Shown here in pieces: positions 3,917 to 39,325 of a DNA stretch of 64,000 nucleotides. Origin of the DNA: an uncultured Oscillospiraceae bacterium. Its GTDB lineage: Bacteria; Bacillota; Clostridia; Oscillospirales; Oscillospiraceae. The notes below the pieces were generated by a model that worked only from the letters and a program-made list of their open reading frames with translations, was not told where the DNA came from and did not search any database. The stretch's first letter is position 1, and every line of letters begins with the position of its first letter. The DNA lies in assembly GCA_947599875.1 (NCBI GenBank), contig CANQFV010000002.1, positions 62,001 to 126,000 of the forward strand. Reading direction: 5' to 3'. A program made the position numbers and the translations under genes.

Positions 3917-4366
3917 TCAGGCGAGCCATTTCACCTTCATCACAAAGTTCGCGGCGTTTCTGTACCCGGCCTTTCCGTAATATCGCTCATGGAGCTGGTC
4001 GTTGACCGCCTGCAGCTCCACGCAGGACGCACCCTTTTCCCGAACTCTGTTCTCCACCTCCGCGAGCAGGGCGCTGCCCAGGCCCCTGTGCTGGCGGCCG
4101 GCGGCGATGACGATCTCCTCCAGGGTATAGCCCACGATGTCGTCATACTGCTTGAAATAGCCCATGACAAACCCGACAGGCTCGCCCTCATCGTCCCGCA
4201 TCAGGAGCGAATAGGAGTCGGCAACGGTCAAAACCTGGCGGATCCTTTTCCCCGCCGTCTCCTCCGTCCAGCAGCCGCCCTCGTGGCCGTTGTACCAGTC
4301 GAGATAGAGCGGCAGGACAGCGCAGACATCTTCCAGGGTCATTTCAGAGATGTTCATGACATCCAT
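3917..4366 (-). CDS. GNAT family N-acetyltransferase
   Basis: This is a 149-residue single-domain GNAT protein. The acetyl-CoA loop is visible as RQHRGLGSALL near residue 95 (the family's Q/RxxGxG/A), preceded by the beta-strand YTLEEIVIAA and followed by the conserved asparagine/tyrosine strand (VNDQLHERYYGKAGY). The substrate cannot be read from sequence. It lies between fhs and fchA with 20- and 14-base gaps, so it is transcribed with C1-folate genes, but there is no known functional link. The RBS before the first ATG is weak, and the second ATG three codons in is an alternative start. Confidence 0.8.
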   Translation of the reverse strand: MDVMNISEMTLEDVCAVLPLYLDWYNGHEGGCWTEETAGKRIRQVLTVADSYSLLMRDDEGEPVGFVMGYFKQYDDIVGYTLEEIVIAAGRQHRGLGSALLAEVENRVREKGASCVELQAVNDQLHERYYGKAGYRNAANFVMKVKWLA

Positions 4367-4386
4367 TTTTCCATATTGTCAAAGGA

Positions 4387-6069
4387 TCAAAAGAGGCCGG
4401 AGATGACGCCGTTTTCGTCCACGTCGATCTTCTCCGCCGCCGGCGCCTTGGGAAGGCCGGGCATGGTCATGATATCCCCGGTGAGGGCCACGATAAAGCC
4501 CGCCCCGGCGGAGACCTTCAGGTTCCGGACAGTCACGTCAAAGCCGCTGGGCGCGCCCAGGAGCTTGGGGTTGTCGGAGAAGCTGTACTGGGTCTTGGCC
4601 ATGCAGATGGGCAGGTCCCCAAAGCCCAGGTCGATAAGCTGTTTGGCCTGCTTCTTCGCCGCGGGGGTGAGGACGGCCTTCCCGCCGTGGTAGATCCAGC
4701 TCACAATGGCGTCCAGCTTGTCCTGGATGGAGGTGCCGTCGGGATAGGCGTAGGTGAATTCCTCCTCCCGGGGCGTCTGGCAAAGGCGCACCACCTCCTG
4801 GGCCAGGGCGATGCCGCCCTCGCCGCCCTGGCCCCAGACCTGGGACAGGGCCACGTTGACGCCCAGCTTCCTGCACTCGTCCTCCACCAGCTTCAGCTCG
4901 CCTTCCGTGTCCGTGGGGAAGCGGTTGACCGCCACCACGCAGGGCAGGTGGAACACGTTCCTGATGTTGTCCACATGCTGTAAAAGGTTGGGAAGTCCGG
5001 CTCTCAGAGCCACCAGATCCTCCTCACCCAGCTGCTTCTTGTCAAGCCCGCCGTGCATCTTCAGCGCCCGGACGGTGGCGACGACCACCACGGCGTCTGG
5101 CTTCAGGCCCGCCATGCGGCACTTGATATCCAGGAATTTCTCCGCACCCAGATCCGCGCCGAAGCCGGCCTCCGTGACGCAGTAATCCCCCAGCTTCAGG
5201 GCGAGCCTGGTGGCCACGATGGAGTTGCACCCGTGGGCGATGTTGGCGAAGGGGCCGCCGTGGACAAAGGCCGGGGTGTGTTCCAGCGTCTGGACGAGGT
5301 TGGGCTTCAGGGCGTCCTTCAAAAGGGCCGTCATGGCCCCGGCGGCCTTCAGATCCCCGGCTGTGACGGGTCTTCCGTCGTAGGTGTAGGCCACGATGAT
5401 GGAGGCCAGGCGCCGCTTCAGATCCGCAAGATCCGCGGCCAGGCAGAAGACAGCCATGATCTCGCTTGCCACGGTGATGTCATACCCGTCCTCCCGGGGC
5501 CGGCCGTTCACTCTGCCGCCCAGGCCGTCCACCACAAAGCGCAGCTGCCGGTCGTTCATATCCACGCACCGGCGCCAGGTGATGGTGGAGGGATCGATGC
5601 CCAGGGCGTTCCCCTGGTAGATGTGGTTGTCCAGCATGGCCGCCAGCAGGTTGTTGGCCGCGCCGATGGCGTGGAAGTCCCCGGTGAAGTGGAGATTGAT
5701 ATCCTCCATAGGCACCACCTGGGCGTACCCGCCGCCGGCCGCACCGCCCTTCACGCCGAAGACGGGGCCGAGGGACGGCTCCCGCAGGGCGATGACGGAC
5801 TTCTTCCCGATCTTCCGGAGGGCGTCCCCCAGCCCCACGGTGGTGGTGGTCTTCCCCTCCCCCGCCGGAGTGGGGGTGATGGCCGTGACGAGGATCAGCT
5901 TGCCGTTTGGCTCCGCCGCCCGGTCTGTGAGGAGCTTCAGGTCGATCTTCGCCTTATAATTTCCGTACTGCTCCACATACTCCGGCCCGATGCCGCACTT
6001 CTCCGCGATGGCGGAGATATGCTCCATCGGTGTGGCCTGGGCGATCTCAATGTCGGTTTTGTACTCCAT
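4387..6069 (-). CDS. fhs: Formate-tetrahydrofolate ligase
   Basis: This enzyme makes 10-formyl-THF from formate, ATP and THF, the entry step of the C1 (Wood-Ljungdahl methyl branch and purine) folate pathway. The 560-residue protein has the expected family length. The P-loop-like [17 protein letters not shown] is at about residues 66-82, with the folate/formate-binding EPSLGPVFG and [11 protein letters not shown] motifs further in. GGGAGG lies seven bases before the ATG. It is the promoter-proximal gene of the minus-strand unit that continues to fchA, comEC and holA. A TATAAT-like box (about 6105-6110) is present upstream, but I found no convincing -35. Confidence 0.97.
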
Positions 6070-18131: not shown

Positions 18132-19043
18132 ATGACAGCACGGATCATCACGCCGGAGACGGTGACGGAGTTTCAGGACAGCCTTCTCCGCCTGGAGCGA
18201 AGCCCCCACACCATCGGACGGTATATGCACGACGTGAAGAGCTACTACGCCTTTTTAGGCGGCCAGGAGGTCACGTCGGAGACCACCTGCGCCTACAAGC
18301 AGAAGCTGGTGGACCGGAAGTACGCCCCATCCAGCATCAACACGATCTTGGCATCCCTCTTCGCCTTCTTCAAATTCATGGAGTGGCCGGGGTGCGGCAC
18401 GCAGCGGATGGTCATCCAGCGGGACGCCTTCTGCCCGGAGGAGAAGGAGCTTTCCCTGCGGGAGTACAAGGCCATCGTGAAGGCCGCCCCCAAGGGGCGG
18501 GACAAGCTGATCGTGCAGACCCTCTGCGCCACGGGGATCCGGGTGTCGGAGCTTCAGTATTTCACCGTGGAGGCGGTGCGCCGGCGGGAGGTAGTCGTCA
18601 TCTGCAAGCGGAAGATCCGGCGGATCATGGTGCCGGACGACCTGGGGGCGCAGCTGGAGGCCTACGCCAAGGAGCGGAAGATCACCTCCGGGCCGATCTT
18701 CCGGGGCTGGAAGGGAAAGCCCCTGAGCCGCAGGCGTGTCTGGGCGGTGACGAAGTCGGCGGGGCACCGGGCCGGGGTCCGGGAGTCCAAGGTCTACCCC
18801 CACAACCTGCGCAAGCTGTTCGCCCGCACCTTCTGTGCCGCGGGCGGGGACGTGGTGAAGCTCTCCGACGTTTTAGGCCACAGCAGCATTGAGACCACCA
18901 GAATTTACACCCGATCCAGCGGGGCGGAGCATCGGCGGCTGGTCAACGCCCTGGGACTGGTGCCGGCCCTGGAGGAGACGCCGGAAAAAGAAAAACCTCC
19001 CCGTTCCCGGAGGAACAGGAGAGGGAAAAAGAGTAGAAGGTAG
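18132..19043 (+). CDS. Tyrosine recombinase, candidate invertase of the adjacent promoter switch
   Basis: This is a 303-residue phage-integrase family recombinase with an N-terminal SAM-like core-binding domain (about residues 1-100) and a catalytic domain. The active-site set is present: Arg136 in ATGIRVSEL, His224 and Arg227 in HNLRKLF, His250 in LGHSSIETT and the Tyr259 nucleophile in RIYTR. The C-terminus is a basic tail rich in Lys/Arg. The ATG at 18132 has GGAGG seven bases upstream. It lies only 47 bp from a pair of inverted repeats that bound a promoter, the same layout as known tyrosine-recombinase DNA inversion switches such as those controlled by RecV in Clostridioides difficile. 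That it inverts this segment is inference. XerC/D housekeeping recombinases are similar in size, so a chromosome-dimer role cannot be excluded. Confidence 0.85.
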   Translation: MTARIITPETVTEFQDSLLRLERSPHTIGRYMHDVKSYYAFLGGQEVTSETTCAYKQKLVDRKYAPSSINTILASLFAFFKFMEWPGCGTQRMVIQRDAFCPEEKELSLREYKAIVKAAPKGRDKLIVQTLCATGIRVSELQYFTVEAVRRREVVVICKRKIRRIMVPDDLGAQLEAYAKERKITSGPIFRGWKGKPLSRRRVWAVTKSAGHRAGVRESKVYPHNLRKLFARTFCAAGGDVVKLSDVLGHSSIETTRIYTRSSGAEHRRLVNALGLVPALEETPEKEKPPRSRRNRRGKKSRR

Positions 19044-19090
19044 AAAGCTCTAAACCTGCGTCGCGGCCGCCCTTCCCCGCCGGGATATTT

Positions 19091-19116
19091 GAAACATTAT
19101 TGATATAATGTTTCCT
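19091..19116 (+). repeat. Left inverted repeat of the switch
   Basis: This 26-bp repeat has internal symmetry: arms GAAACATTA and TAATGTTTC flank an asymmetric TTGATA centre, followed by CT. That is the layout of a tyrosine recombinase core site, with two binding arms and a short directional spacer. Confidence 0.75.
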
Positions 19117-19301
19117 TTTATCAGATCCGGACACGCGGCTGTGCCCCTAAAAATGGAAATACATACCAGGGAATGGCCTTTTTGGGCACGGCAAAGCGCG
19201 CCCTCAGGGTCTTTCCAAACTTTGGGGGCGCTAACGGGGCGTCGCGGCGTGGGCATTTATGTCAACTAAGCACGCTTTTTCAAAATTTTCTCCCTCTTTG
19301 C

Positions 19302-19329
19302 TTGACAATTTGGGCAAATCGTCTATAAT
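19302..19329 (+). promoter_or_regulatory. Promoter inside the invertible segment
   Basis: TTGACA (19302-19307) and TATAAT (19324-19329) both match consensus, with 16 bp between them. Transcription would start about 40 bp before the right inverted repeat and run toward the prepilin gene at 19831, so this is the presumed ON orientation. Confidence 0.8.
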
Positions 19330-19374
19330 GATAGAGAAGAATTTTGTGTTGCTTGCTCCTTCCTGCCGTGATTG

Positions 19375-19400
19375 AGGAAACATTATATCAATAATGTCTC
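19375..19400 (-). repeat. Right inverted repeat of the switch
   Basis: Its reverse complement matches the left repeat at 25 of 26 positions. The one mismatch is at the third base, A versus G. The spacer reads TATCAA on the plus strand, opposite to the left copy, so recombination between the two would invert the intervening DNA. Confidence 0.75.
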
Positions 19401-19621
19401 GAAAAGATGGCTGCCATTCGTCTCGCATGGGGCGGGAGGCGGGCCTTTTGTTCAATTTAACGGAAAACAACAAGGGTGTGGCGTCCGGTCACGACCCTGC
19501 TTGTGCTTTAAAAACTCTGACGACCAGGGAAGTGTTGGAAAATTAAGGAAATCGCTCCCCTCTTCCAGCATCCTCCACGAAAAAACCGGATAAAAAATCG
19601 TAGAAATACATCATTTGGGAC

Positions 19622-19650
19622 TTGAATTATTCGTCTGACTATTGTATAAT
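19622..19650 (+). promoter_or_regulatory. Fixed promoter upstream of the long prepilin
   Basis: TTGAAT (19622-19627), 17 bp, TATAAT (19645-19650). It lies outside the invertible segment, so basal transcription of the pilin locus may not depend entirely on the switch. Confidence 0.7.
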
Positions 19651-24502: not shown

Positions 24503-24597
24503 AGCGTTGAATCCGGAACCGGAGCTTCCGCTTCGATTTCGGCTTGAGCGCTCCACCGGGTAAGACCCAGGCCGCGCCTTATTTGGAGGAACTAACC

Positions 24598-26328
24598 TTG
24601 AACGAAAAGCTTCTCAACTATCTGCTCGGGAAGGGCTACATCACCAAGGAACAGGCGGACAGCCTGCGGGAGGAATACCGCTCGGCCAGAAAATCCGTCC
24701 GTGACCTGCTGATGGAGAAGGGGCTTGTGCCGGAGGAGGCCATTGTGGACGCTCTGTCGGAGCTTTCACGGCTGCCCAGGGTCAAGCTCTATGAGATCAC
24801 CATCCCCCCGGAGGTTCGCCGGCTTGTGCCGCCGGATCTGCTGCGGGCGAATATGGTCATCCCCTTCGATTTTGACGGCGATGACACCGGCACACTGCGC
24901 GTGGCCCTGTGCGACCCCATGAACCTGAAGGGCCGGGACGTGGTGGCTATCACCAGTAAGCTCCGGGTGCGGCCGTATCTGGCCACATCCGCGGATATCA
25001 TGCGCACCATCGACCGGTACTACGGTACGCAGGAGATGCAGGCGGCCGTGGAGCAGTTCTCCGTGGCGCAGATGGGCGACACCCCCCGTTCCCTGGAGGA
25101 CGAGCTGGCCCAGGCGGACGTAAACTCCTCCCCTGTCGTTATGCTGGTCAACTCCCTGGTGGAGCAGGCCGTCCGGCAGAGGGCCTCGGACATCCACATC
25201 GAGCCGGAGGCGGATCAGATCCGCGTGCGGTTCCGGGTGGACGGCGTGCTGTACAGGCGCGCCACCTACGAGCTGAATCTGCTGGGCGCCATCATCACCC
25301 GAGTGAAGATCATAAGCTCTATGGACATCTCCGAAAAGCGCAAGCCCCAGGACGGCAGCTTCTCCATCACCGTTGACCGGATGGAATACGACGTGCGTGT
25401 CTCCACCGTCCCCACGGCGTATGGGGAGAAGTGCGTCATGCGTCTCACCCAGAAGCGGGCGCTGAACCGGGACAAGGAGAGTCTGGGACTTTCCGGTTCC
25501 GATCTTGTGATTTTTGACAAGCTGTTGGAGAAGCCCAACGGGATCGTCCTGGTGACGGGGCCCACTGGCTCGGGCAAATCCACCACGCTATACACGGCCC
25601 TCAGCGGACTGAACCAGGAGACGGTGAACATCGTCACCGTGGAAGACCCGGTGGAGGCGCATATTGACGGCATCAACCAGATCCAGGTCAACCCCAGGGC
25701 GGACATGACCTTCGCCACGGTGCTGCGCTCCATCCTCCGCCAGGACCCGGACATCATCATGATCGGCGAGATCCGTGACACGGAGACGGCGGCCATCGCC
25801 GTCCAGGCCTCCATCACGGGGCATCTGGTTCTCAGCACCCTGCACACCAACGACACGGCCAGCAGCGTCACCCGTCTGCTGGACATGGGGGTGGAGAGCT
25901 ACCTGATCGCCGACGCCACCGTGGGCATCATCGCCCAGCGCCTTGTGCGGCGGCTGTGCCCCAACTGCAAGCACGCCCGGCACCCCCACCCACACGAGGC
26001 GGACTATTTGGACATCCCGGAGGATCAGATCGAGAACACCAACATCTGGGAGCCGGTTGGCTGCCCCAGGTGCAGCGGAACGGGGTATTTTGACCGGATC
26101 GCCGTGTACGAGATCATGGATATCACCCCTCCCCTGCGCTCCCTCATCTCCCGAAAGGCCTCCGCCGACGAGATCCGCGCCCTGGCGGTGCGGGAGGGGA
26201 TGCACACCTTAAAGGCCAGCGCCAGGGAGCTTGTCCTGGCCGGCACCACCACCATCAGCGAGATGCAGCGCATCAGCATGGAGGACGACATGCCGGAGGC
26301 CATCCACAGCGGGGAGAGCATGGCATGA
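24598..26328 (+). CDS. pilB: Type IV pilus assembly ATPase PilB (GspE family)
   Basis: This is the hexameric cytoplasmic motor that powers pilin extrusion. The 576-residue protein has an N-terminal GspE_N/MshEN domain (about residues 1-150), Walker A GPTGSGKSTT (about 321-330), Walker B DPDIIMIGEIRDTETA, the His-box LSTLHTNDTA and a C-terminal zinc site with CPNC and CPRC. I chose TTG at 24598, seven bases after GGAGGA; the longer frame from 24544 lacks an RBS. The stop overlaps pilT by four bases. Confidence 0.95.
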   Translation: MNEKLLNYLLGKGYITKEQADSLREEYRSARKSVRDLLMEKGLVPEEAIVDALSELSRLPRVKLYEITIPPEVRRLVPPDLLRANMVIPFDFDGDDTGTLRVALCDPMNLKGRDVVAITSKLRVRPYLATSADIMRTIDRYYGTQEMQAAVEQFSVAQMGDTPRSLEDELAQADVNSSPVVMLVNSLVEQAVRQRASDIHIEPEADQIRVRFRVDGVLYRRATYELNLLGAIITRVKIISSMDISEKRKPQDGSFSITVDRMEYDVRVSTVPTAYGEKCVMRLTQKRALNRDKESLGLSGSDLVIFDKLLEKPNGIVLVTGPTGSGKSTTLYTALSGLNQETVNIVTVEDPVEAHIDGINQIQVNPRADMTFATVLRSILRQDPDIIMIGEIRDTETAAIAVQASITGHLVLSTLHTNDTASSVTRLLDMGVESYLIADATVGIIAQRLVRRLCPNCKHARHPHPHEADYLDIPEDQIENTNIWEPVGCPRCSGTGYFDRIAVYEIMDITPPLRSLISRKASADEIRALAVREGMHTLKASARELVLAGTTTISEMQRISMEDDMPEAIHSGESMA

Positions 26329-27386
26329 CAAAGCTTGATACGATCATCGCGAAGGCCCAGCAAAAGCGGGCCTCCGATATACACCTGACCGTGGGGCTTC
26401 CACCTGTCCTGCGCATCGACGGCGTCCTCACCAACGACGACACGCCGCCCTTCACCGCGGAGGAGATGGAGGAGGCCGCCAAGGATCTGGCGGGCGCATC
26501 CCACATGGAGGAGCTGAACCGGGACGGGGAGACGGACTTCGCCGTGACGGTTCTCGGGTCCATGCGGATGCGCTGCAACATCTTCCACCAGCAGGGGGAG
26601 ACGGCAATGGCCCTGCGGCTTTTGCCCCTGGCCGTACCCACCACCAAGGATCTGCTCCTGCCCCGGATCATCATCGAGCAGGCGGAAAAGCCCCGGGGAA
26701 TGGTGCTGATCACCGGCCCCACCGGCTCCGGAAAAAGCTCCACGCTGGCGGCGCTGCTGGACCACATCAACCGCACGTCCCACCGGCACATCATCACCCT
26801 GGAAAACCCCATCGAGTACGTCCACCGGCCTATGGGCTGCGTCATCCACCAGCGGGAGATCGGCCCGGACACCGGGAGCTTCGCCGCGGGACTCCGCGCC
26901 GCCCTCCGTCAGGACCCGGACGTGATCTTAGTGGGTGAGATGCGGGATCTGGAGACCATCTCCACCGCCATCACCGCCGCCGAGACCGGACACCTTGTGT
27001 TCGGCACCCTGCACACCAAGGGGGCAGCCAACACGGTGGATCGTATCATAGACGTGTTCCCCGCCGAGCAGCAGGAGCAGATCCGCATCCAGCTGGCGGA
27101 CGTTCTGGAGTGCGTCATCGGCCAGACGCTGCTGCCCAAGATCGGCGGCGGACGCCGGGCCGTGTTTGAGATCATGGTGGGCACCCCCGCCGTGAAGAGC
27201 CTTATCCGGCAGAACAAGTCCTTCCAGATCCCCAACGCCATGCAGACGGGGAAAAAGCAGGGCATGGCCCCGCTGGACGACGCCCTGGCGGCGCTGATCC
27301 GCTCCGGCGAGGTGACGGCCAAGGACGCCGCCGCCGCGGCCAACGACCCGGACATTGTGGGCGCTGTAGAGCGCGTTAAGCTATAG
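26325..27386 (+). CDS. pilT: Twitching motility / pilus retraction ATPase PilT
   Basis: This is the retraction motor of type IV pili. The 353-residue protein has the PilT-specific N-terminus KRASDIHLTVGLPPVLRIDG, Walker A ITGPTGSGKSST (about residues 127-138), Walker B DPDVILVGEMRDLETI and GTLHTKGA. The usual C-terminal AIRNLIRE motif is only weakly matched here (AVKSLIRQNKSFQ). A retraction ATPase implies a dynamic pilus rather than a static secretion pseudopilus. It overlaps pilB by ATGA and is followed by pilC after 12 bases. Confidence 0.94.
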   Translation: MTKLDTIIAKAQQKRASDIHLTVGLPPVLRIDGVLTNDDTPPFTAEEMEEAAKDLAGASHMEELNRDGETDFAVTVLGSMRMRCNIFHQQGETAMALRLLPLAVPTTKDLLLPRIIIEQAEKPRGMVLITGPTGSGKSSTLAALLDHINRTSHRHIITLENPIEYVHRPMGCVIHQREIGPDTGSFAAGLRAALRQDPDVILVGEMRDLETISTAITAAETGHLVFGTLHTKGAANTVDRIIDVFPAEQQEQIRIQLADVLECVIGQTLLPKIGGGRRAVFEIMVGTPAVKSLIRQNKSFQIPNAMQTGKKQGMAPLDDALAALIRSGEVTAKDAAAAANDPDIVGAVERVKL

Positions 27387-27398
27387 GAGGCGTAAACC

Positions 27399-28616
27399 TT
27401 GCCCGCATATACCTACACCGCAATCAATACCACCGGCAAGCGCGTCACCGGCTCCTTGGAGGCCGCCACGCTGGACGCCGCCAAGGGGTCCCTGCGGGGC
27501 GTGGGCTACACCATCGTGGAGATCAAGCCCCCCAGCCTCTTTGAGCGGGAATTCAACGTCCCCTTCCTGGGGCGGCCCAAGCCAAAGGATATGGCTATCT
27601 TCTGCCGCCAGTTCGTGTCCATCCTCCGGGCCGGCGAGTCGCTGTCCTTAGTTCTCTCCATGCTGAGCCAGCAGACGGAGAACAAGCAGCTGGCCGACGC
27701 CATCCGGGAGATCCAGACGGACGTGGAGAAGGGCGAGACCCTGGCCGGGGCCATGCGCAAGCACCCCAAGGAATTCCCCCCCATGCTCACCAACATGGTG
27801 GCCGCCGGCGAGGACTCCGGTAATTTGGAGGAGTCCTTCCGCCAGATGGAGATCTACTACGAGAAGGCCCACCACACCCGGGGCGCCGTGAAAAAGGCCA
27901 TGATCTACCCCTGCATCCTGCTTGTGGTGATGCTGGCCGTCTTAGTTTTGATGATGACGAAGATCATCCCCTCCTTTTTGGAGACGTTTGAGCAGCTGGA
28001 CGCGGAGCTGCCCGCCCTGACCCTGGCGGTCATGGCCGTGAGCCACTGGTTTACCAAGTGGTGGTACGTCCTCTTCGGCGGGATCGCCGTGGTGATCATG
28101 CTGGGGGTCCTCTTCGGCCGCACGCCGGAGGGCAAGCACTTCTTCGGGTACATCGCCCGGAAGGCCCCGGTTTTCGGGCGCCTGACCGTGCGTTCCGCCT
28201 GCGCCACCATGACGCGCACCATGTCGCTGCTGTTGGGTTCCGGCCTCACCCTTTTGGAGAGCCTGGATCTGACGGCGGGGAACATGTCCAATATCTGGTT
28301 TGCCGACGCTTTGCACACCGTGAGCAGCCTGGTGTCCCAGGGCTGGCCCCTGGCCGTGAGCCTGCGGGACACGGGCCTGTTCCCGCCTATGGTGTCGAAC
28401 CTCGTGCGGGTGGGCGAAGAGGCCGGCGACCTACAGGGGTCCCTGAGCAAGATCGCGGACTTCTACGACGAGGAGGTCAACGACGCCACCGCCAAGCTCC
28501 TGTCCCTGATGGAGCCGGCGATCATCCTGCTGATGGCCGGGTTCGTGGTGATCATCGTTCTGTCCATCTTCCTGCCCATGCTGAGCATGACGCAGGCGTA
28601 TGACCAATATTTATAA
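27399..28616 (+). CDS. pilC: Type IV pilus inner-membrane platform protein PilC (GspF family)
   Basis: This is the polytopic platform that couples PilB/PilT to pilin assembly. The 405-residue protein has two T2SSF domains (about residues 65-190 and 270-395; e.g. FCRQFVSILRAGESL and ATMTRTMSLLLGSGLTLLESL) and three membrane helices, the last near the C-terminus. It starts at TTG 27399 behind GGAGG. A structured repeat element begins immediately after its stop. Confidence 0.94.
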   Translation: MPAYTYTAINTTGKRVTGSLEAATLDAAKGSLRGVGYTIVEIKPPSLFEREFNVPFLGRPKPKDMAIFCRQFVSILRAGESLSLVLSMLSQQTENKQLADAIREIQTDVEKGETLAGAMRKHPKEFPPMLTNMVAAGEDSGNLEESFRQMEIYYEKAHHTRGAVKKAMIYPCILLVVMLAVLVLMMTKIIPSFLETFEQLDAELPALTLAVMAVSHWFTKWWYVLFGGIAVVIMLGVLFGRTPEGKHFFGYIARKAPVFGRLTVRSACATMTRTMSLLLGSGLTLLESLDLTAGNMSNIWFADALHTVSSLVSQGWPLAVSLRDTGLFPPMVSNLVRVGEEAGDLQGSLSKIADFYDEEVNDATAKLLSLMEPAIILLMAGFVVIIVLSIFLPMLSMTQAYDQYL

Positions 28617-34461: not shown

Positions 34462-34977
34462 ATGAAACCTAAGAGAAGCCGCGGCGGATATGTGATGATC
34501 TACGTTATGGTGGTCATCGCCATCATCTCCGCCATGTCCCTGTCGGTCAGCTCCATCTCCCTGCGGAATCTCCAGGCCCAGGAGGCGTCGATCCGGCAGA
34601 TGAAGGACACCTACGCCGCCGAGGGCATGGTGGAGATGTTCTGCGTGTGGCTAAAGGAGTTTTATGTACAGTTTGGATACAACGATTTTTCAGAGACATC
34701 GTTAAAAGATGCGTGGGATATTTCCAAAGGAGAACTGGAGAACAGTAGAAACGGAACCGTCGAAATATCCAACTTTTCTGTCTCGGGAAACTCCTACACA
34801 GTTACGATTACCGCGAAGTCAAATAACGGCGCGATGCAGGTTGTCGCAGTGCTGGAGGTCACGACTGGAACTTCTTCTAATGGATTTACCACGGTCAAAG
34901 AGGTCAAGTACACTTCCTACACCGTCTCCCCTGCCGAGAAGACGGAAGGCGGCGGATCGGGAGGAGGGTCAGAATGA
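34462..34977 (+). CDS. PilX/GspK-like minor pilus protein
   Basis: This 171-residue protein has a hydrophobic N-terminal helix (GGYVMIYVMVVIAIISAMS) with a Gly-Gly before it but no FTLxE motif. This resembles PilX or GspK-type components whose +5 residue is not Glu. It ends in a Gly/Ser-rich tail. GAGGAGG is eight bases before the ATG. It overlaps the next gene by ATGA. Like its neighbour, the central part (34660-34900) is AT-richer than the ends. Confidence 0.7.
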   Translation: MKPKRSRGGYVMIYVMVVIAIISAMSLSVSSISLRNLQAQEASIRQMKDTYAAEGMVEMFCVWLKEFYVQFGYNDFSETSLKDAWDISKGELENSRNGTVEISNFSVSGNSYTVTITAKSNNGAMQVVAVLEVTTGTSSNGFTTVKEVKYTSYTVSPAEKTEGGGSGGGSE

Positions 34978-36101
34978 AACGAAGAAACGGCGGCTTCACC
35001 CTGGTGGAGATGCTGGCCACCCTGACATGCACCACCCTCGTCACGATGGCGGCCTTCTCGTTTCTGCTGGTGTGCTTCCGGATGTGCGCCTCCGCCACCG
35101 GCACCGCCAGGGACCAGGACACCTCCAGGATCGTCCTCACCCTGATGGACAACATCGCCACGCAGGGGCAGCTGACGCCGAAATCCGCAGGCACGGCTGG
35201 TGGCGACATTGTGATGTACAATGACGACACGGGTGCCGGCGGCACCAAAACGGTCATGTTCTATTATTCCAAGAGCGCAAAAACCATCTACACCGGCGGA
35301 AACTACAATGAGGCCGAAAAAAAATACACCGGCGGAACCGCACTCATGGATGGTGTGGAGGACTTTGAGGCTAAACTTGATCCCGACACCAAGCTGCTGA
35401 CGGTAACGGTCACAACGGCCAGCGGCACCTTCAAGTCCTGCAAATACTGCCGGACGGCAAAGGTGGAATCTACTGGCGGCAGTGGTGAACCCTCCTCCCA
35501 GTCCCTGAACCCCGCGCTTTTGGGGGGCATGACGGCCACCTTCAGCACCAAGGCCGCTGCCCTGCCCCAGATCGGCAACGCGGAGTGGGCGGGACGGCTC
35601 TCGCTGATCACGAACCTGAGCCTGCAGGACGGCAGTACCGGTGAGATCATCGGCGATAAGCAGGGCCGGTATTTTTCCGAGTGGTACATAGGCGGGTACT
35701 CCCAGGCAAACGGGTGGAACAAGAACACCCCCTGGTGCGCCTGCTTCGCCTCCTGGGGGATCGCCCAGGTGCGGGATTCCCTGGTGAAGGTGGTGTCCTT
35801 CGCCGACGTGGACTCCGGCGTCATGCGGTTCCGTGACGGGACCTTCGGCTCCTGGGTGGAGCGGGACGGCCTGCCCATCCCGGGGGATCTGATCTTCTTT
35901 GACTGGGACGCCGACCCCACCCCGGATTACAAGGACGCCGCCGAGCATGTGGGCGTCGTTTGCCGGATCGAGAACGGCCGGGTGTACACCATCGAGGGGA
36001 ACAGCAACGGCCGCGTGGCCCAGCGCAGCTACCCGCTGGACGACCCCTGCATTTTGGGCTACGGCCGCTTGGAGTGGAAGTCGTCTGCAAAGAAAGCGTA
36101 A
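34974..36101 (+). CDS. Minor prepilin fused to a CHAP peptidoglycan hydrolase domain
   Basis: This 375-residue protein starts with a prepilin signal (NGG|FTLVEMLATLTCTTLV) and a PilW/GspJ-like pilin part (to about residue 170). The C-terminal half (about 215-370) looks like a CHAP amidase/endopeptidase domain, with the nucleophile Cys255 in TPWCACFASWG, PGDLIFFDWD, the catalytic His325 in EHVGVV, and the closing YTIEGNSNG and CILGYGR strands. It would place a wall-cutting enzyme on the pilus or at its base, perhaps opening the thick Gram-positive wall for the fibre. I know of no described pilin-CHAP fusion. The function is inferred from domains only. Confidence 0.8.
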   Translation: MKRRNGGFTLVEMLATLTCTTLVTMAAFSFLLVCFRMCASATGTARDQDTSRIVLTLMDNIATQGQLTPKSAGTAGGDIVMYNDDTGAGGTKTVMFYYSKSAKTIYTGGNYNEAEKKYTGGTALMDGVEDFEAKLDPDTKLLTVTVTTASGTFKSCKYCRTAKVESTGGSGEPSSQSLNPALLGGMTATFSTKAAALPQIGNAEWAGRLSLITNLSLQDGSTGEIIGDKQGRYFSEWYIGGYSQANGWNKNTPWCACFASWGIAQVRDSLVKVVSFADVDSGVMRFRDGTFGSWVERDGLPIPGDLIFFDWDADPTPDYKDAAEHVGVVCRIENGRVYTIEGNSNGRVAQRSYPLDDPCILGYGRLEWKSSAKKA

Positions 36102-36259: not shown

Positions 36260-36397
36260 GTGATTTCCATTCCATCCCAAAAACGAAAAACCCGGACGGT
36301 CATCATTGACCCCAACAGCCCCAAGGCCCTGGAGCGGGCGCTGCTGCGCCTCATCGTGGAGAAGCTGCTCCGCCAGGAGCGGGAGGCGGGAGATTGA
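36260..36397 (+). CDS. Small protein ahead of the serine recombinase
   Basis: A GTG-started 45-codon frame encodes a basic helical peptide (RTVIIDPNSPKALERALLRL, then VEKLLRQERE). Its stop overlaps the TTG start of the recombinase (TTGA), so the two are translationally coupled. Small ORFs in this position before clostridial large serine recombinases are familiar to me but unnamed. It is below the size where coding can be proven by eye. Confidence 0.45.
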   Translation: MISIPSQKRKTRTVIIDPNSPKALERALLRLIVEKLLRQEREAGD

Positions 36398-37890
36398 GGA
36401 TCGCCGCCTATTGCCGGGTCTCCACGGAAAAGGAGGAGCAGCAGGACAGCTTAAAGCATCAGAAGCAGTTTTTTCAGGAGTACGCCCAAAAATACGGCCA
36501 CACCCTGGTGCGCCTCTACGCCGACGAGGGCATCTCCGGGACAAGCCTGAAAAAGCGGGACCAGTTTCTCCGGCTGATGGAGGACGCCAGGAAGGGGCTG
36601 TTTGAAACGGTGGTGGTGAAGGATGTCTCCCGCCTTGCCAGGAACACCGTGGACTTCCTCCAGAGCATCCGCACCCTGAAATCCTGCGGTGTGAACACCC
36701 TGTTCATCACCGCCAACATGGACACCCTGGGGGAGTCGGAATTCGTCCTCACCCTCTTTGGGGCGATGGCCCAGGAGGAGAGCGCGAACCTGAGCCGCCG
36801 CGTGAAATTCGGCAAAAAGCTCAACGCCCAGAAGGGCCGCGTCCCGCAGCGCATCTTCGGCTACGACCGGGTGGACAACTTCAACCTGGCGGTGAATCCG
36901 GAGGAGGCCCAGACCGTCCGGCAGATCTTCCGCCTCTATCTGGAGGAGGGGCTGGGGTGCCGGGCCATCAGCCTCCAGCTCAACGCCCAGGGGGCGAAGA
37001 CAAAATTCGGCTGTGACTGGGACCCCCGGGGCGTGCGGCGGATCCTCACAAACTCCATCTACTGCGGGCGGTATGTGAACAACAAGTACGAGATCCAGGA
37101 CTACCTGACGGGAAAGCAGATCCGCATCCCGGAGGAGCAGCACTACCACCACCCGCGGCCCCAGTGGGCCATCGTCACCCCGGAGGAGTTTGACGCGGCC
37201 CAGGAGCTTATGGCGCGGCGGCGGACCCAGTACGGCCCCGGGGAATCCTTTCAGCAGGCCCGCTACAGCACAAGGCACGTTTTCAGCACCCTGATCCGGT
37301 GCGAGAGCTGCGGCCAGTCCTTCTGCCGGAAGCAGTATACATACGCCAACACCCGGGTCTACTGGAAGTGCCGCACCAACGACCAGTACACGTCCCGGCG
37401 GTGCGGCAACGGCGTGACGGTGGACGAGCGGGAGCTGTTGGATCAGCTGGGCGCCTACCTCGCCTCCCGGATCGGCGACAGGGACGTATTTGTCGAAAAC
37501 GCTCTCACAGCCCTTGAGAGGCGCTGTACAGCACGGGAGGGTCAGGGGGATGTTACTACCCTTGCCAGGGAGAAAAAGCGTCTCCTGGGCAAAAGAGAGC
37601 GGTTACAGGAGATGTACGTCAACGATGTGATCACGCTGGAGGAGCTGAAGGAGAAAACGGCCGCCCTGACAGCTCAGCTGTCGAAGCTCGAGGCCCGCGC
37701 ATCCCCTCCCCCCGCCCGGCGGGACGCCGCGGCGCTGCGGGAGACATACACCCGCCGGATCCTGGCCTTTCTGGTGATGGAGGATGTGACGAATCTCGAT
37801 CTGCGGCAGATCGTGGAGCGCGTCAGCGTAAGCCAGGAGGGCGTCGTCACGGTGTTTCTCCGGGATGTGGGGGCCTCGCCTGCCTATTAA
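36394..37890 (+). CDS. Large serine recombinase
   Basis: This 498-residue protein has a resolvase catalytic domain (about residues 1-145; nucleophile Ser in AAYCRVSTEKEEQQ; the conserved VVVKDVSRLARN and AMAQEESANLSRR), a recombinase domain (about 155-270), a zinc ribbon with CESCGQSFC and later Cys pair, and a coiled coil near the C-terminus. Such enzymes integrate or excise mobile elements or invert DNA. I did not find its att sites. It is not flanked by other phage or conjugation genes, so it may act on the pilus locus or be a relic of an element. Confidence 0.92.
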   Translation: MRIAAYCRVSTEKEEQQDSLKHQKQFFQEYAQKYGHTLVRLYADEGISGTSLKKRDQFLRLMEDARKGLFETVVVKDVSRLARNTVDFLQSIRTLKSCGVNTLFITANMDTLGESEFVLTLFGAMAQEESANLSRRVKFGKKLNAQKGRVPQRIFGYDRVDNFNLAVNPEEAQTVRQIFRLYLEEGLGCRAISLQLNAQGAKTKFGCDWDPRGVRRILTNSIYCGRYVNNKYEIQDYLTGKQIRIPEEQHYHHPRPQWAIVTPEEFDAAQELMARRRTQYGPGESFQQARYSTRHVFSTLIRCESCGQSFCRKQYTYANTRVYWKCRTNDQYTSRRCGNGVTVDERELLDQLGAYLASRIGDRDVFVENALTALERRCTAREGQGDVTTLAREKKRLLGKRERLQEMYVNDVITLEELKEKTAALTAQLSKLEARASPPPARRDAAALRETYTRRILAFLVMEDVTNLDLRQIVERVSVSQEGVVTVFLRDVGASPAY

Positions 37891-38518: not shown

Positions 38519-38708
38519 CCCGGCGTTACAGAGGGACGGTTCTTTAGTCCCACCTGCGGTGTGACAAAAAAACCGTCCCTCAGTCCCGCCTTTGACGGAG
38601 GAACTGCCCGTCTTTTGAGGAGGTGGGACAGCGGGGACGGTTCTTTCGTCACATCGGAGCAAAGCGGAGATGGGACTAAAGAACCGTCCCCGTGTCACAC
38701 CGGCTGCC
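38519..38708 (+). repeat. 190-bp intergenic repeat, copy 1
   Basis: It contains two inverted-repeat units: GAGGGACGGTT...AACCGTCCCTC and GGGGACGGTTCTTT...AAAGAACCGTCCCC, with GTCCCACC/GGTGGGAC arms between. Copy 2 at 38951-39142 is nearly identical. No ORF spans it convincingly. Confidence 0.8.
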
Positions 38709-38754
38709 CGGGGACGTACCCTTCCCCGTGAGGCAATGGAGACGCTCAATCATC

Positions 38755-38880
38755 GCGACACGGGCCGCCGTGGGCGGCGGCCCCTACGGCAAATATTAAA
38801 GTTTTCCGTCTTAACGCAACCGCTCTGTCACCCAACCCACCCGGGCCGATGAGGTCATCGGCCCCTACAGGGGACTCTTA
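38755..38880 (+). repeat. Two short palindromic GGGCCG...CGGCCCCTAC units
   Basis: GGGCCGCCGTGGGCGGCGGC at about 38763 and GGGCCGATGAGGTCATCGGC at about 38847 are both followed by CCCCTAC. They are short hairpins of the same plan with different inner bases. They lie between the two 190-bp repeats, and the remaining sequence there shows no gene. Confidence 0.55.
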
Positions 38881-38950
38881 CGGACAGTAGGAACCGCTGC
38901 TGTCGATAACTCCCTGGAAGGAGGCCATTATCGTTGGACGAGACTCCTGA

Positions 38951-39142
38951 CCCGGCGTTACAGAGGGACGGTTCTTTAGTCCCACCTGCGGTGTGACAAA
39001 AAAACCGTCCCTCAAGTCCCGCCTTTGTCGGAGGAACTACCCGCCTTTTGAGGAGGTGGGACAAAGGGGACGGTTCTTTCGTCACATCGGAGCAAAGCGG
39101 AGATGGGACTAAAGAACCGTCCCCGTGTCACACCGGCTGCCC
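38951..39142 (+). repeat. 190-bp intergenic repeat, copy 2
   Basis: It matches copy 1 at 38519 with only a few substitutions and one or two single-base indels over about 190 bp. Confidence 0.8.
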
Positions 39143-39173
39143 TCAGAACGCCTACCCGGCAGGGGGCAAAAAA

Positions 39174-39222
39174 GGGGAGCAACTATAGATTGCGGCCTGG
39201 CAATCTATAATTGCTCCCTCTT
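39174..39222 (+). terminator. Long hairpin with T-tail
   Basis: GGGAGCAA-TATAGATTG and CAATCTATA-TTGCTCCC arms with a short GC loop, then TCTTTTTTG. It may be a terminator or the relic of a small palindromic insertion inside the repeat cluster. Confidence 0.55.
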
Positions 39223-39236
39223 TTTTGCTGTTGTCA

Positions 39237-39325
39237 CACCGGCGTTACAGAGGGACGGTTCTTTTGTCACACCTCCGCTGACGCTGCGGTGTGGCAAAAA
39301 AACCGTCCCTCCGTCCCGCCTTTTA
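39237..39325 (+). repeat. Partial third copy of the intergenic repeat
   Basis: It holds the first inverted-repeat unit only (GAGGGACGGTTCTTT...AAAAACCGTCCCTC), with an inserted CTCCGCTGACGC in the loop compared with copies 1 and 2. Confidence 0.65.

What the first reader, a model, noticed from the sequence alone, without database searches (positions are those of the whole stretch)
18132..19650. Probable invertible promoter (phase switch) with its own tyrosine recombinase, facing a pilus locus
Seen: two inverted 26-bp repeats matching at 25 of 26 positions, each with 9-bp arms around an asymmetric 6-bp centre; 258 bp between them; a TTGACA-16-TATAAT promoter inside pointing outward; and a complete tyrosine recombinase gene ending 47 bp away. 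Known: tyrosine recombinases (FimB/E, RecV and others) flip promoters flanked by such sites. Inferred: the long prepilin, SLH protein and pilB-pilT-pilC are expressed in an ON/OFF fashion. The fixed promoter at 19622 could set a basal level, so the switch may boost rather than gate expression.
Basis: partly seen in the sequence, partly recalled or inferred. Interest (0 to 1): 0.92.

Follow-up and report, generated by a model that had tools for sequence, protein, structure and literature searches.

The report
Self-switching pilin cassette, one of many
This bacterium carries a pilus-protein gene behind a small promoter segment that its neighbouring recombinase very probably flips on and off, and it holds at least ten more such switch-plus-pilin units around its genome, which looks like a way to keep changing its surface.

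Summary
The unit is one of 15 recombinase genes in this genome. Twelve have a readable 3' side; all twelve have such a site pair and inner promoter, 10 pointing inward, 2 outward (window, C1). Eleven can be read further and lead to a long prepilin with a conserved N-terminus and divergent remainder. In related genomes one switch type is seen in both orientations: L047 vs L048, flanks direct, 290-bp segment 97.6% identical on the opposite strand, exchange inside the shared core. The recombinase is not the housekeeping Xer. Pilin-linked recombinases form one clade in a tree of 69. In three of six congeners examined, other inversion devices lie upstream of the SLH-pilB operon. Invertible promoters with a neighbouring recombinase are known; a dispersed repertoire of at least 11 (possibly 18) long pilins, each with its own recombinase and switch, did not turn up in my nine paper searches. 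The operon-wide ON/OFF claim remains inferred; a fixed promoter-like site lies at 19622.

The parts
18132..19043 (+). tyrosine recombinase (303 aa), presumed DNA invertase of the adjacent sites
   Evidence: Pfam PF00589 83 bits; R137, K159, K161, H224, R227, H250, Y259 invariant in 6 paralog types (catalytic roles recalled); 14 full-length or nearly full-length paralogs in own genome
19091..19116 (+). left inverted recombination site
   Evidence: 25/26 match to right site
19117..19374 (.). invertible segment (258 bp)
   Evidence: homologous segments in other own cassettes lie in the opposite orientation; an orthologous pair of a sister cassette is inverted
19302..19329 (+). invertible promoter TTGACA-16-TATAAT, here pointing to the pilin
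   Evidence: 12/12 consensus; 12/12 in 10 and 11/12 in 1 of the other 11 site pairs
19336..19347 (+). conserved 5'-leader motif GAAGAATTTTGT just after the -10
   Evidence: GAAGAATTTYG follows the promoter in all 12 own segments; also in part of the pilin-linked relatives
19375..19400 (-). right inverted recombination site
19622..19650 (+). second, fixed promoter-like site (TTGAAT-17-TATAAT) outside the segment
   Evidence: 10/12; no such outward site in the two other long leaders scanned, L025 and L048
19831..21177 (+). long prepilin, 448 aa
   Evidence: N_methyl PF07963; over most of its length 39-40% identical to the C12 and C42a pilins and 32-37% to those of L040, L113, L045, L042
21336..24434 (+). 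SLH-domain surface protein
   Evidence: PF00395, 3 stretches; 67-68% orthologs in two congeners directly before pilB
24544..26328 (+). pilB assembly ATPase
   Evidence: PF00437 + PF05157 MshEN
26325..27386 (+). pilT retraction ATPase
   Evidence: PF00437; 87% in two congeners
27399..28616 (+). pilC platform protein
   Evidence: PF00482

Best explanation
A site-specific DNA inversion switch. The recombinase at 18132-19043 recognises the two inverted 24-26 bp sites and flips the 258-bp segment between them. In the sequenced state the promoter points at the prepilin (ON); flipped, it would point back toward the recombinase's 3' end and leave the pilin to the fixed promoter-like site. The unit is one of a dispersed family of recombinase - invertible promoter - long prepilin cassettes (15 recombinases, 18 long prepilins, 11 contiguous cassettes), each with its own recombinase, so a population could present changing sets of pilins on shared type IV pilus machinery. 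Shown here: anatomy, the family, both orientations among homologous and orthologous cassettes, exchange within the shared core, one clade of pilin-linked recombinases. Inferred: activity of this copy, transcription from the promoter, effect on SLH/pilBTC, surface display and purpose.
For:: L047 vs L048, recombinase side 90.3% and first 232 bp of the right flank 88.8% on the same strand, 290-bp segment 97.6% on the opposite strand; own C61 vs L048, flank 92.3% direct, segment 97.9% opposite; inverting L048 in silico raises identity to L047 from 273/468 to 437/449 aligned columns; outer site flanks stay, inner flanks swap; of 12 own site pairs, 10 promoters inward, 2 outward; 25 sites in the own genome, reversed-pattern control 0; all 25 listed places lie beside a cassette recombinase; 75 of 93 related loci with at least 400 bp downstream have a site pair just after the recombinase, against 0 of 141 upstream windows and 0 of 465 shuffles; 29 pilin-labelled recombinases on one side of a 100/100 branch, 40 others on the other; contigs end within 200 bp downstream of the recombinase in 13 of 80 loci, upstream in 2 of 80; not XerD.
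Against: No reads or second strain, so inversion of 19117-19374 itself is not seen; no ortholog in 34 genomes. The 10:2 count is not independent: five own cassettes share an identical 258-bp segment, possibly an assembly collapse. C13 and C36 also have a weaker outward 10/12 match, so 'inward' is a matter of score there. 18 of 93 related loci showed no site pair. The fixed promoter-like site at 19622 could keep the pilin expressed when flipped. No structure prediction was obtained.
Confidence: 0.9

Rival explanations
1. The switch modulates rather than gates: the fixed promoter at 19622 gives a basal level of pilin and machinery, and the outward orientation only boosts it. This may be special to the machinery locus, while the orphan cassettes elsewhere are truly ON/OFF.
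For: TTGAAT-17-TATAAT at 19622-19650, 10/12; the leaders of L025 (C45) and L048 show only the invertible promoter; shared machinery would need steady expression (inference).
Against: A 10/12 consensus match is not proof of activity; shuffles of the region give 1.1 promoter-like sites on average at the tool's looser threshold. Only two other leaders of this length were scanned by the tool.
Confidence: 0.4
2. A formerly active switch, now locked in this copy or silent.
For: No inverted copy of this segment was found; the two sites differ at 2 of 29 positions, both on the outer side.
Against: Recombinase open and with the invariant residues; both 18-bp cores and both inner arms identical; in the inverted orthologous pair the bases next to the core also differ between the two sites.
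Confidence: 0.08
3. Housekeeping Xer recombinase with a dif-like site, or a phage/mobile element integrase with attachment sites, and not a phase switch.
For: Best solved relatives by sequence are Xer proteins (4a8e, 1a0p); relatives occur on some viral contigs.
Against: XerD is on contig C9; sites come in inverted pairs with core starts 230-449 bp apart beside the genes; orthologs are inverted in place with both flanks kept, which integration or excision would not give.
Confidence: 0.02
4. The outward promoter mainly serves an ON-specific leader RNA: one arm of a long hairpin lies inside the segment and the other in the fixed leader, so the structure is assembled only after the promoter turns outward, and controls mRNA stability, termination or translation of the pilin.
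For: 14 of 16 outward-configured leaders pair at 15-17 of 17 positions across the junction, reached by 0-3 of 300 shuffles each; outward exceeds inward pairing in 17 of 20 loci. 11 of the 16 were joined in silico.
Against: The window copy (C2) and C1 are the two that fail (14/17; 24 and 40 of 300 shuffles) and they pair better with the left flank. In one search shuffled right flanks reached or passed the observed number of pairs at least once in several loci (for instance L040, L041, L050, L049, L044, C25, C67). The loci are related, so not independent. No RNA data. Could be arm-type recombinase binding sites in DNA.
Confidence: 0.3

Closest known systems
Gut Clostridia invertons with a neighbouring tyrosine recombinase (inverton group 139 / invertase group 35, PMC11892184, passages seen)
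   Same: Short invertible segments, 32 of 33 in class Clostridia, linked to tyrosine-type recombinases within 5 kb; changing orientation shown there by reads
   Different: The main text has 0 occurrences of 'pilin' or 'pili'; I could not check that the recombinases are the same family. Median there is 3 invertons per Firmicutes_A genome
C. difficile RecV switches (cwpV: PMC2784873 passages; flagellar and pdcB/pdcC switches: abstracts in search listings)
   Same: Tyrosine-recombinase inversion upstream of surface or signalling genes in a clostridial gut bacterium; cwpV also has a junction-dependent predicted RNA hairpin
   Different: One recombinase, RecV, acts at several loci there (partly recalled); in cwpV the promoter lies outside the segment and the hairpin is predicted in the OFF state
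E. coli fim switch (FimB/FimE; mentioned in passages, details recalled)
   Same: Promoter-bearing invertible segment of about 300 bp near its recombinase genes, controlling a pilus
   Different: Chaperone-usher fimbriae, one locus, two short recombinases; here one 303-aa recombinase per locus, type IV pilins, many loci
Moraxella bovis pilin inversion (cited in PMC5903667 and PMC11868660, otherwise recalled)
   Same: DNA inversion changes which type IV pilin is made
   Different: There the pilin genes themselves are inverted, by an unrelated recombinase (recalled); here a promoter moves
Bacteroides fragilis capsule promoters (mentioned in a PMC11868660 passage and its reference list; details recalled)
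   Same: Many invertible promoters in one commensal genome controlling alternative surface products
   Different: There one trans-acting serine recombinase, Mpi (recalled), and polysaccharides; here a tyrosine recombinase beside each switch, and pilins

Membership tests
Invertible promoter (inverton) | promoter between inverted recombination sites | tested here: met
Invertible promoter (inverton) | both orientations exist in nature for the same locus | tested here: inconclusive
   met for orthologs of sister cassette C61; for the window copy no ortholog to compare
Invertible promoter (inverton) | orientation controls expression of the adjacent gene | not testable with these tools
   no RNA or reporter data
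Tyrosine recombinase / DNA invertase | catalytic domain with R, K, H, R, H, Y | tested here: met
   Pfam 83 bits; invariant residues over six paralog types; catalytic roles recalled
Housekeeping XerC/XerD | scores above curated equivalog cut-off | tested here: not met
   XerD 109.9 against 329.6 bits, XerC 105.9 against 335.15; the C9 gene passes XerD with 350.3
FimB/FimE-type short DNA invertase | scores above curated models PRK09870/PRK09871 | tested here: not met
   32 and 34 bits against 221 and 222; longer protein with N-terminal SAM-like domain
Type IV prepilin | N-terminal GFTLVE cleavage and methylation motif | tested here: met
   PF07963 34.4 bits (cut-off 21.2) and TIGR02532 33 bits (cut-off 16.3)
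Type IV prepilin | assembles into a pilus | not tested

The most novel reading that the evidence does not exclude
A probable gut commensal runs a dispersed antigenic-variation system for type IV pilins: up to 18 long pilin genes, each in its own recombinase-switch cassette, sharing one pilus machine that is itself under an inversion switch. Cassettes multiply and exchange parts (near-identical recombinase, switch, leader and pilin N-terminus, divergent remainder), and turning the promoter outward also assembles an ON-specific leader hairpin from one arm inside and one arm outside the segment.
Probability: 0.4. Interest if true: 0.88.

Novelty: new variant of a known kind. Interest (0 to 1): 0.74.

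Why it matters
[quoted passage not shown] Here a bacterium whose nearest named relatives are uncultured Oscillospiraceae from samples named 'Lapin' (rabbit gut and commensal life are inferred from that name and family) appears to hold at least 12 recombinase-linked switches, 11 of them shown to face one class of surface filament protein. Because each cassette carries its own recombinase and a readable orientation, pilin choice could be followed in metagenomes by counting junction reads. Recombinase-site matching can be studied within one genome (cores TGAT, AGAT, AAAT) and its relatives (also GGAT, AGGA).

Tried and rejected
Rejected: housekeeping Xer or dif; integrase attachment sites (inversion in place); chance repeat. 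Rejected as proof: the junction hairpin as an intrinsic terminator, since in several leaders the U-run stands well away from the upper stem and L041, L042 and L050 have no run of five U directly after it (read by eye). Complementarity between the leader motif GAAGAATTTYG and the pilin start ATGAAACAAAATTCTTC was noticed by eye, but the window copy and the MQKR-type relatives lack it, so it was dropped without a test. Led nowhere: Rfam (one hit at 13.5 bits, gathering score 40); paper searches (no paper); structure prediction; the viral-contig scan was not analysed beyond its listing. My first locus parser missed many recombinases and was replaced.

Dropped rows and limits: the genome scan kept the best 80 of 352 relatives. 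The tree used 69 of 78 rows (identical rows removed) and left out C42b, C8 and C17; own C61 was labelled pilin although its contig ends before any pilin. The orientation count used 65 distinct of 75 segments. L120-L147 partly repeat the same genomes as L040-L119; for L040-L119 alone, 61 of 66 loci with at least 400 bp have a pair.

Full report
OBSERVATION. The two 26-bp sites match at 25 of 26; the 24-mer with up to three mismatches occurs twice in 64 kb and in none of 100 shuffles. The inner promoter is a perfect TTGACA-16-TATAAT, the outer fixed one 10 of 12.

THE UNIT IS ONE OF A FAMILY. A search of the own genome (2.73 Mb, 89 contigs, 100% complete, 0.03% contamination by the tool's table) with the window recombinase gives 15 full-length or nearly full-length members including itself (others 46-65% identical), one 53-residue fragment, and four distant hits (30-38%). 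The pattern ACATTATNNNNATAATGT occurs 25 times in the genome, its reversed control 0 times (among the 34 genomes of that call the control hits once, in G312). The 25 listed places are all at cassettes: 12 pairs plus one single at a contig end. In that of 34 genomes of the genus have the pattern (own 25, G319 10, others 2-6); a stricter pattern is found in 4 of 300 genomes of the family. Twelve recombinases have a readable pair downstream, 276-318 bp between core starts. Each segment carries a TTGACA/TATAAT promoter of 11-12 of 12 matches followed by GAAGAATTTYG. Ten of these promoters point back to the recombinase, two (window C2, and C1) point away. C13 and C36 also hold a weaker outward 10/12 match. 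Five of the ten share one identical segment, so there are 8 distinct segments, 6 inward and 2 outward.

THE TARGETS ARE LONG PREPILINS. All 11 cassettes with readable sequence beyond the right site are followed by a prepilin of 408-544 aa. Over the first 60 aligned positions they are 41-98% identical, over the full length 14-44%. In five near-identical cassettes no column varies from position 886 to 1340 (segment, leader, pilin start), while their recombinase genes differ at 51-93 positions; further on the pilin genes diverge. This may be gene conversion or assembly collapse; I cannot tell which. The genome has 18 such long prepilins (open frames 466-631 aa, besides 5 short ones). The seven outside complete cassettes all have their upstream side at a contig end: six have 69-524 bp before the GFTLVEL motif, the seventh (C38) is cut by the end itself. 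So none is shown to lack a cassette; four recombinases (C8, C17, C42b, C61) conversely end contigs without a pilin.

INVERSION IN RELATIVES. In the C61 type, L047 and L048 come from two uncultured Oscillospiraceae MAGs (Lapin-005 bin33, Lapin-032 bin87). The recombinase side (90.3%) and the first 232 bp of the right flank (88.8%) align directly, the 290-bp segment aligns over its whole length on the opposite strand (97.6%); own C61 against L048 gives 92.3% direct and 97.9% opposite (C61 has no right flank). Inverting L048 in silico raises identity to L047 from 273 of 468 to 437 of 449 columns, and the outer bases next to the sites stay while the inner ones move, so exchange took place within the shared core. 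L046 is outward as well. Among 16 distinct pilin-linked segments outside the genome, 13 are inward and 3 outward by promoter score; under a stricter rule 8 inward, 3 outward, 5 unclear. Of 49 other segments 20 are inward, 3 outward, 26 unclear or tied. For the window switch itself no ortholog was found: in 34 genomes only partial matches of 67-85% turned up besides itself and its own 93% sites.

THE WIDER FAMILY. A scan of GTDB genomes found 352 relatives and returned the best 80. With 28 loci added, 108 were examined: 93 have at least 400 bp downstream, 75 of these a site pair (some loci are the same place in two collections). The same finder gives 0 of 141 on upstream windows and 0 of 465 on shuffled windows. 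Most wider relatives use ACATAAT-N4-ATTATGT; in 48 of the 75 no prepilin motif lies within 1.5 kb and by their first residues many next genes look like other surface, secreted or unrelated proteins (not searched). A maximum-likelihood tree of 69 recombinases puts 29 pilin-labelled and 40 other on two sides of a 100/100 branch, one change against a shuffled mean of 22 (bootstrap not fully settled). Contigs end within 200 bp after the recombinase in 13 of 80 loci but within 200 bp before it in 2 of 80, as expected if mixed orientations break assemblies; at 350 bp it is 14 against 5.

THE PIL OPERON. Six congener stretches with the pilB ortholog were fetched. In G312 and G325 (SLH 67-68%, pilB 75%) the 1.9 and 5.9 kb upstream show no match to the window recombinase, pilin or site. 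Instead, a 1485-bp segment with a 371-aa tyrosine integrase gene (PF00589, 86 bits) lies there, 97.2% identical between the two genomes on opposite strands, while the flank into the SLH gene is 94% direct. G231 has another tyrosine recombinase (41% identical, PF00589) and a perfect 19-bp inverted repeat 150 bp apart just before its SLH and pilB genes. In G315 a pilin cassette sits beside the operon but points away. For G323 and G326 little upstream sequence was held and nothing was seen there. Inversion devices thus recur upstream of this operon, which supports the idea that it is phase-variable, though no expression was measured. In the window no forward terminator-like site lies between pilin and SLH gene.

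LEADER HAIRPIN. With the promoter outward, one arm of a long hairpin comes from the segment and one from the fixed leader, the right site at its tip. Fourteen of 16 leaders pair at 15-17 of 17 positions (0-3 of 300 shuffles as good), but the window copy and C1 reach 14 with 24 and 40 of 300. Outward pairing exceeds inward in 17 of 20 loci, though whole-leader folds with shuffled right flanks reach the observed number in several loci. Alifold gave a consensus of only -13.6 because two groups are offset by one. I treat this as an unexplained feature and not as part of the main claim.

LITERATURE. Listings and passages only; no paper was read whole. Two searches for inversion and pilins in Clostridia or Firmicutes gave no paper, a third for Moraxella none; the listings show, by title and abstract start, none on a recombinase-linked pilin repertoire. 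Subscription papers are mostly absent, so absence here is weak. PMC11892184 passages report changing orientation of tyrosine-recombinase-linked invertons in Clostridia.

VERDICT. The finding is right and larger than stated: new variant of a known kind.

Noticed in passing
L162:1-1485 and L163 (reverse strand) 3983-5465: A 1485-bp segment with a 371-aa tyrosine integrase gene upstream of the SLH-pilB operon is inverted between two congeners; repeats AGAAGGAAAAGTTCTGCGACAC lie at its ends.
   Followed up: partly
L160:1750-1937: Another inverton-like pair (19-bp perfect repeat, 150 bp apart) after a 41%-identical recombinase and before the SLH and pilB genes of G231.
   Followed up: partly
window 36394-37890: Large serine recombinase (Resolvase, Recombinase domains) directly after the pilus gene cluster.
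   Followed up: no
window 34974-36101: Prepilin-like protein with a CHAP domain at the end of the pilus cluster.
   Followed up: no
window 38520-39273; L025:7829-8098: Dispersed GTGACAnnGGGACGGTTCTTT repeats, also inside the leaders of C45-type cassettes.
   Followed up: no
L030:6240-6398 (C12:38239-38397): 92% identical 53-residue fragment of a cassette recombinase just after the C12 pilin, perhaps a remnant of a second cassette.
   Followed up: no
G000:C3:42374-42456: 74% match to the switch promoter region; no site of the cassette pattern is listed on that contig.
   Followed up: no
cassettes C45, C25, C1 and others: Start of many pilins (ATGAAACAAAATTCTTC) is complementary, by eye, to the conserved leader motif GAAGAATTTYG; not in the window copy.
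   Followed up: no
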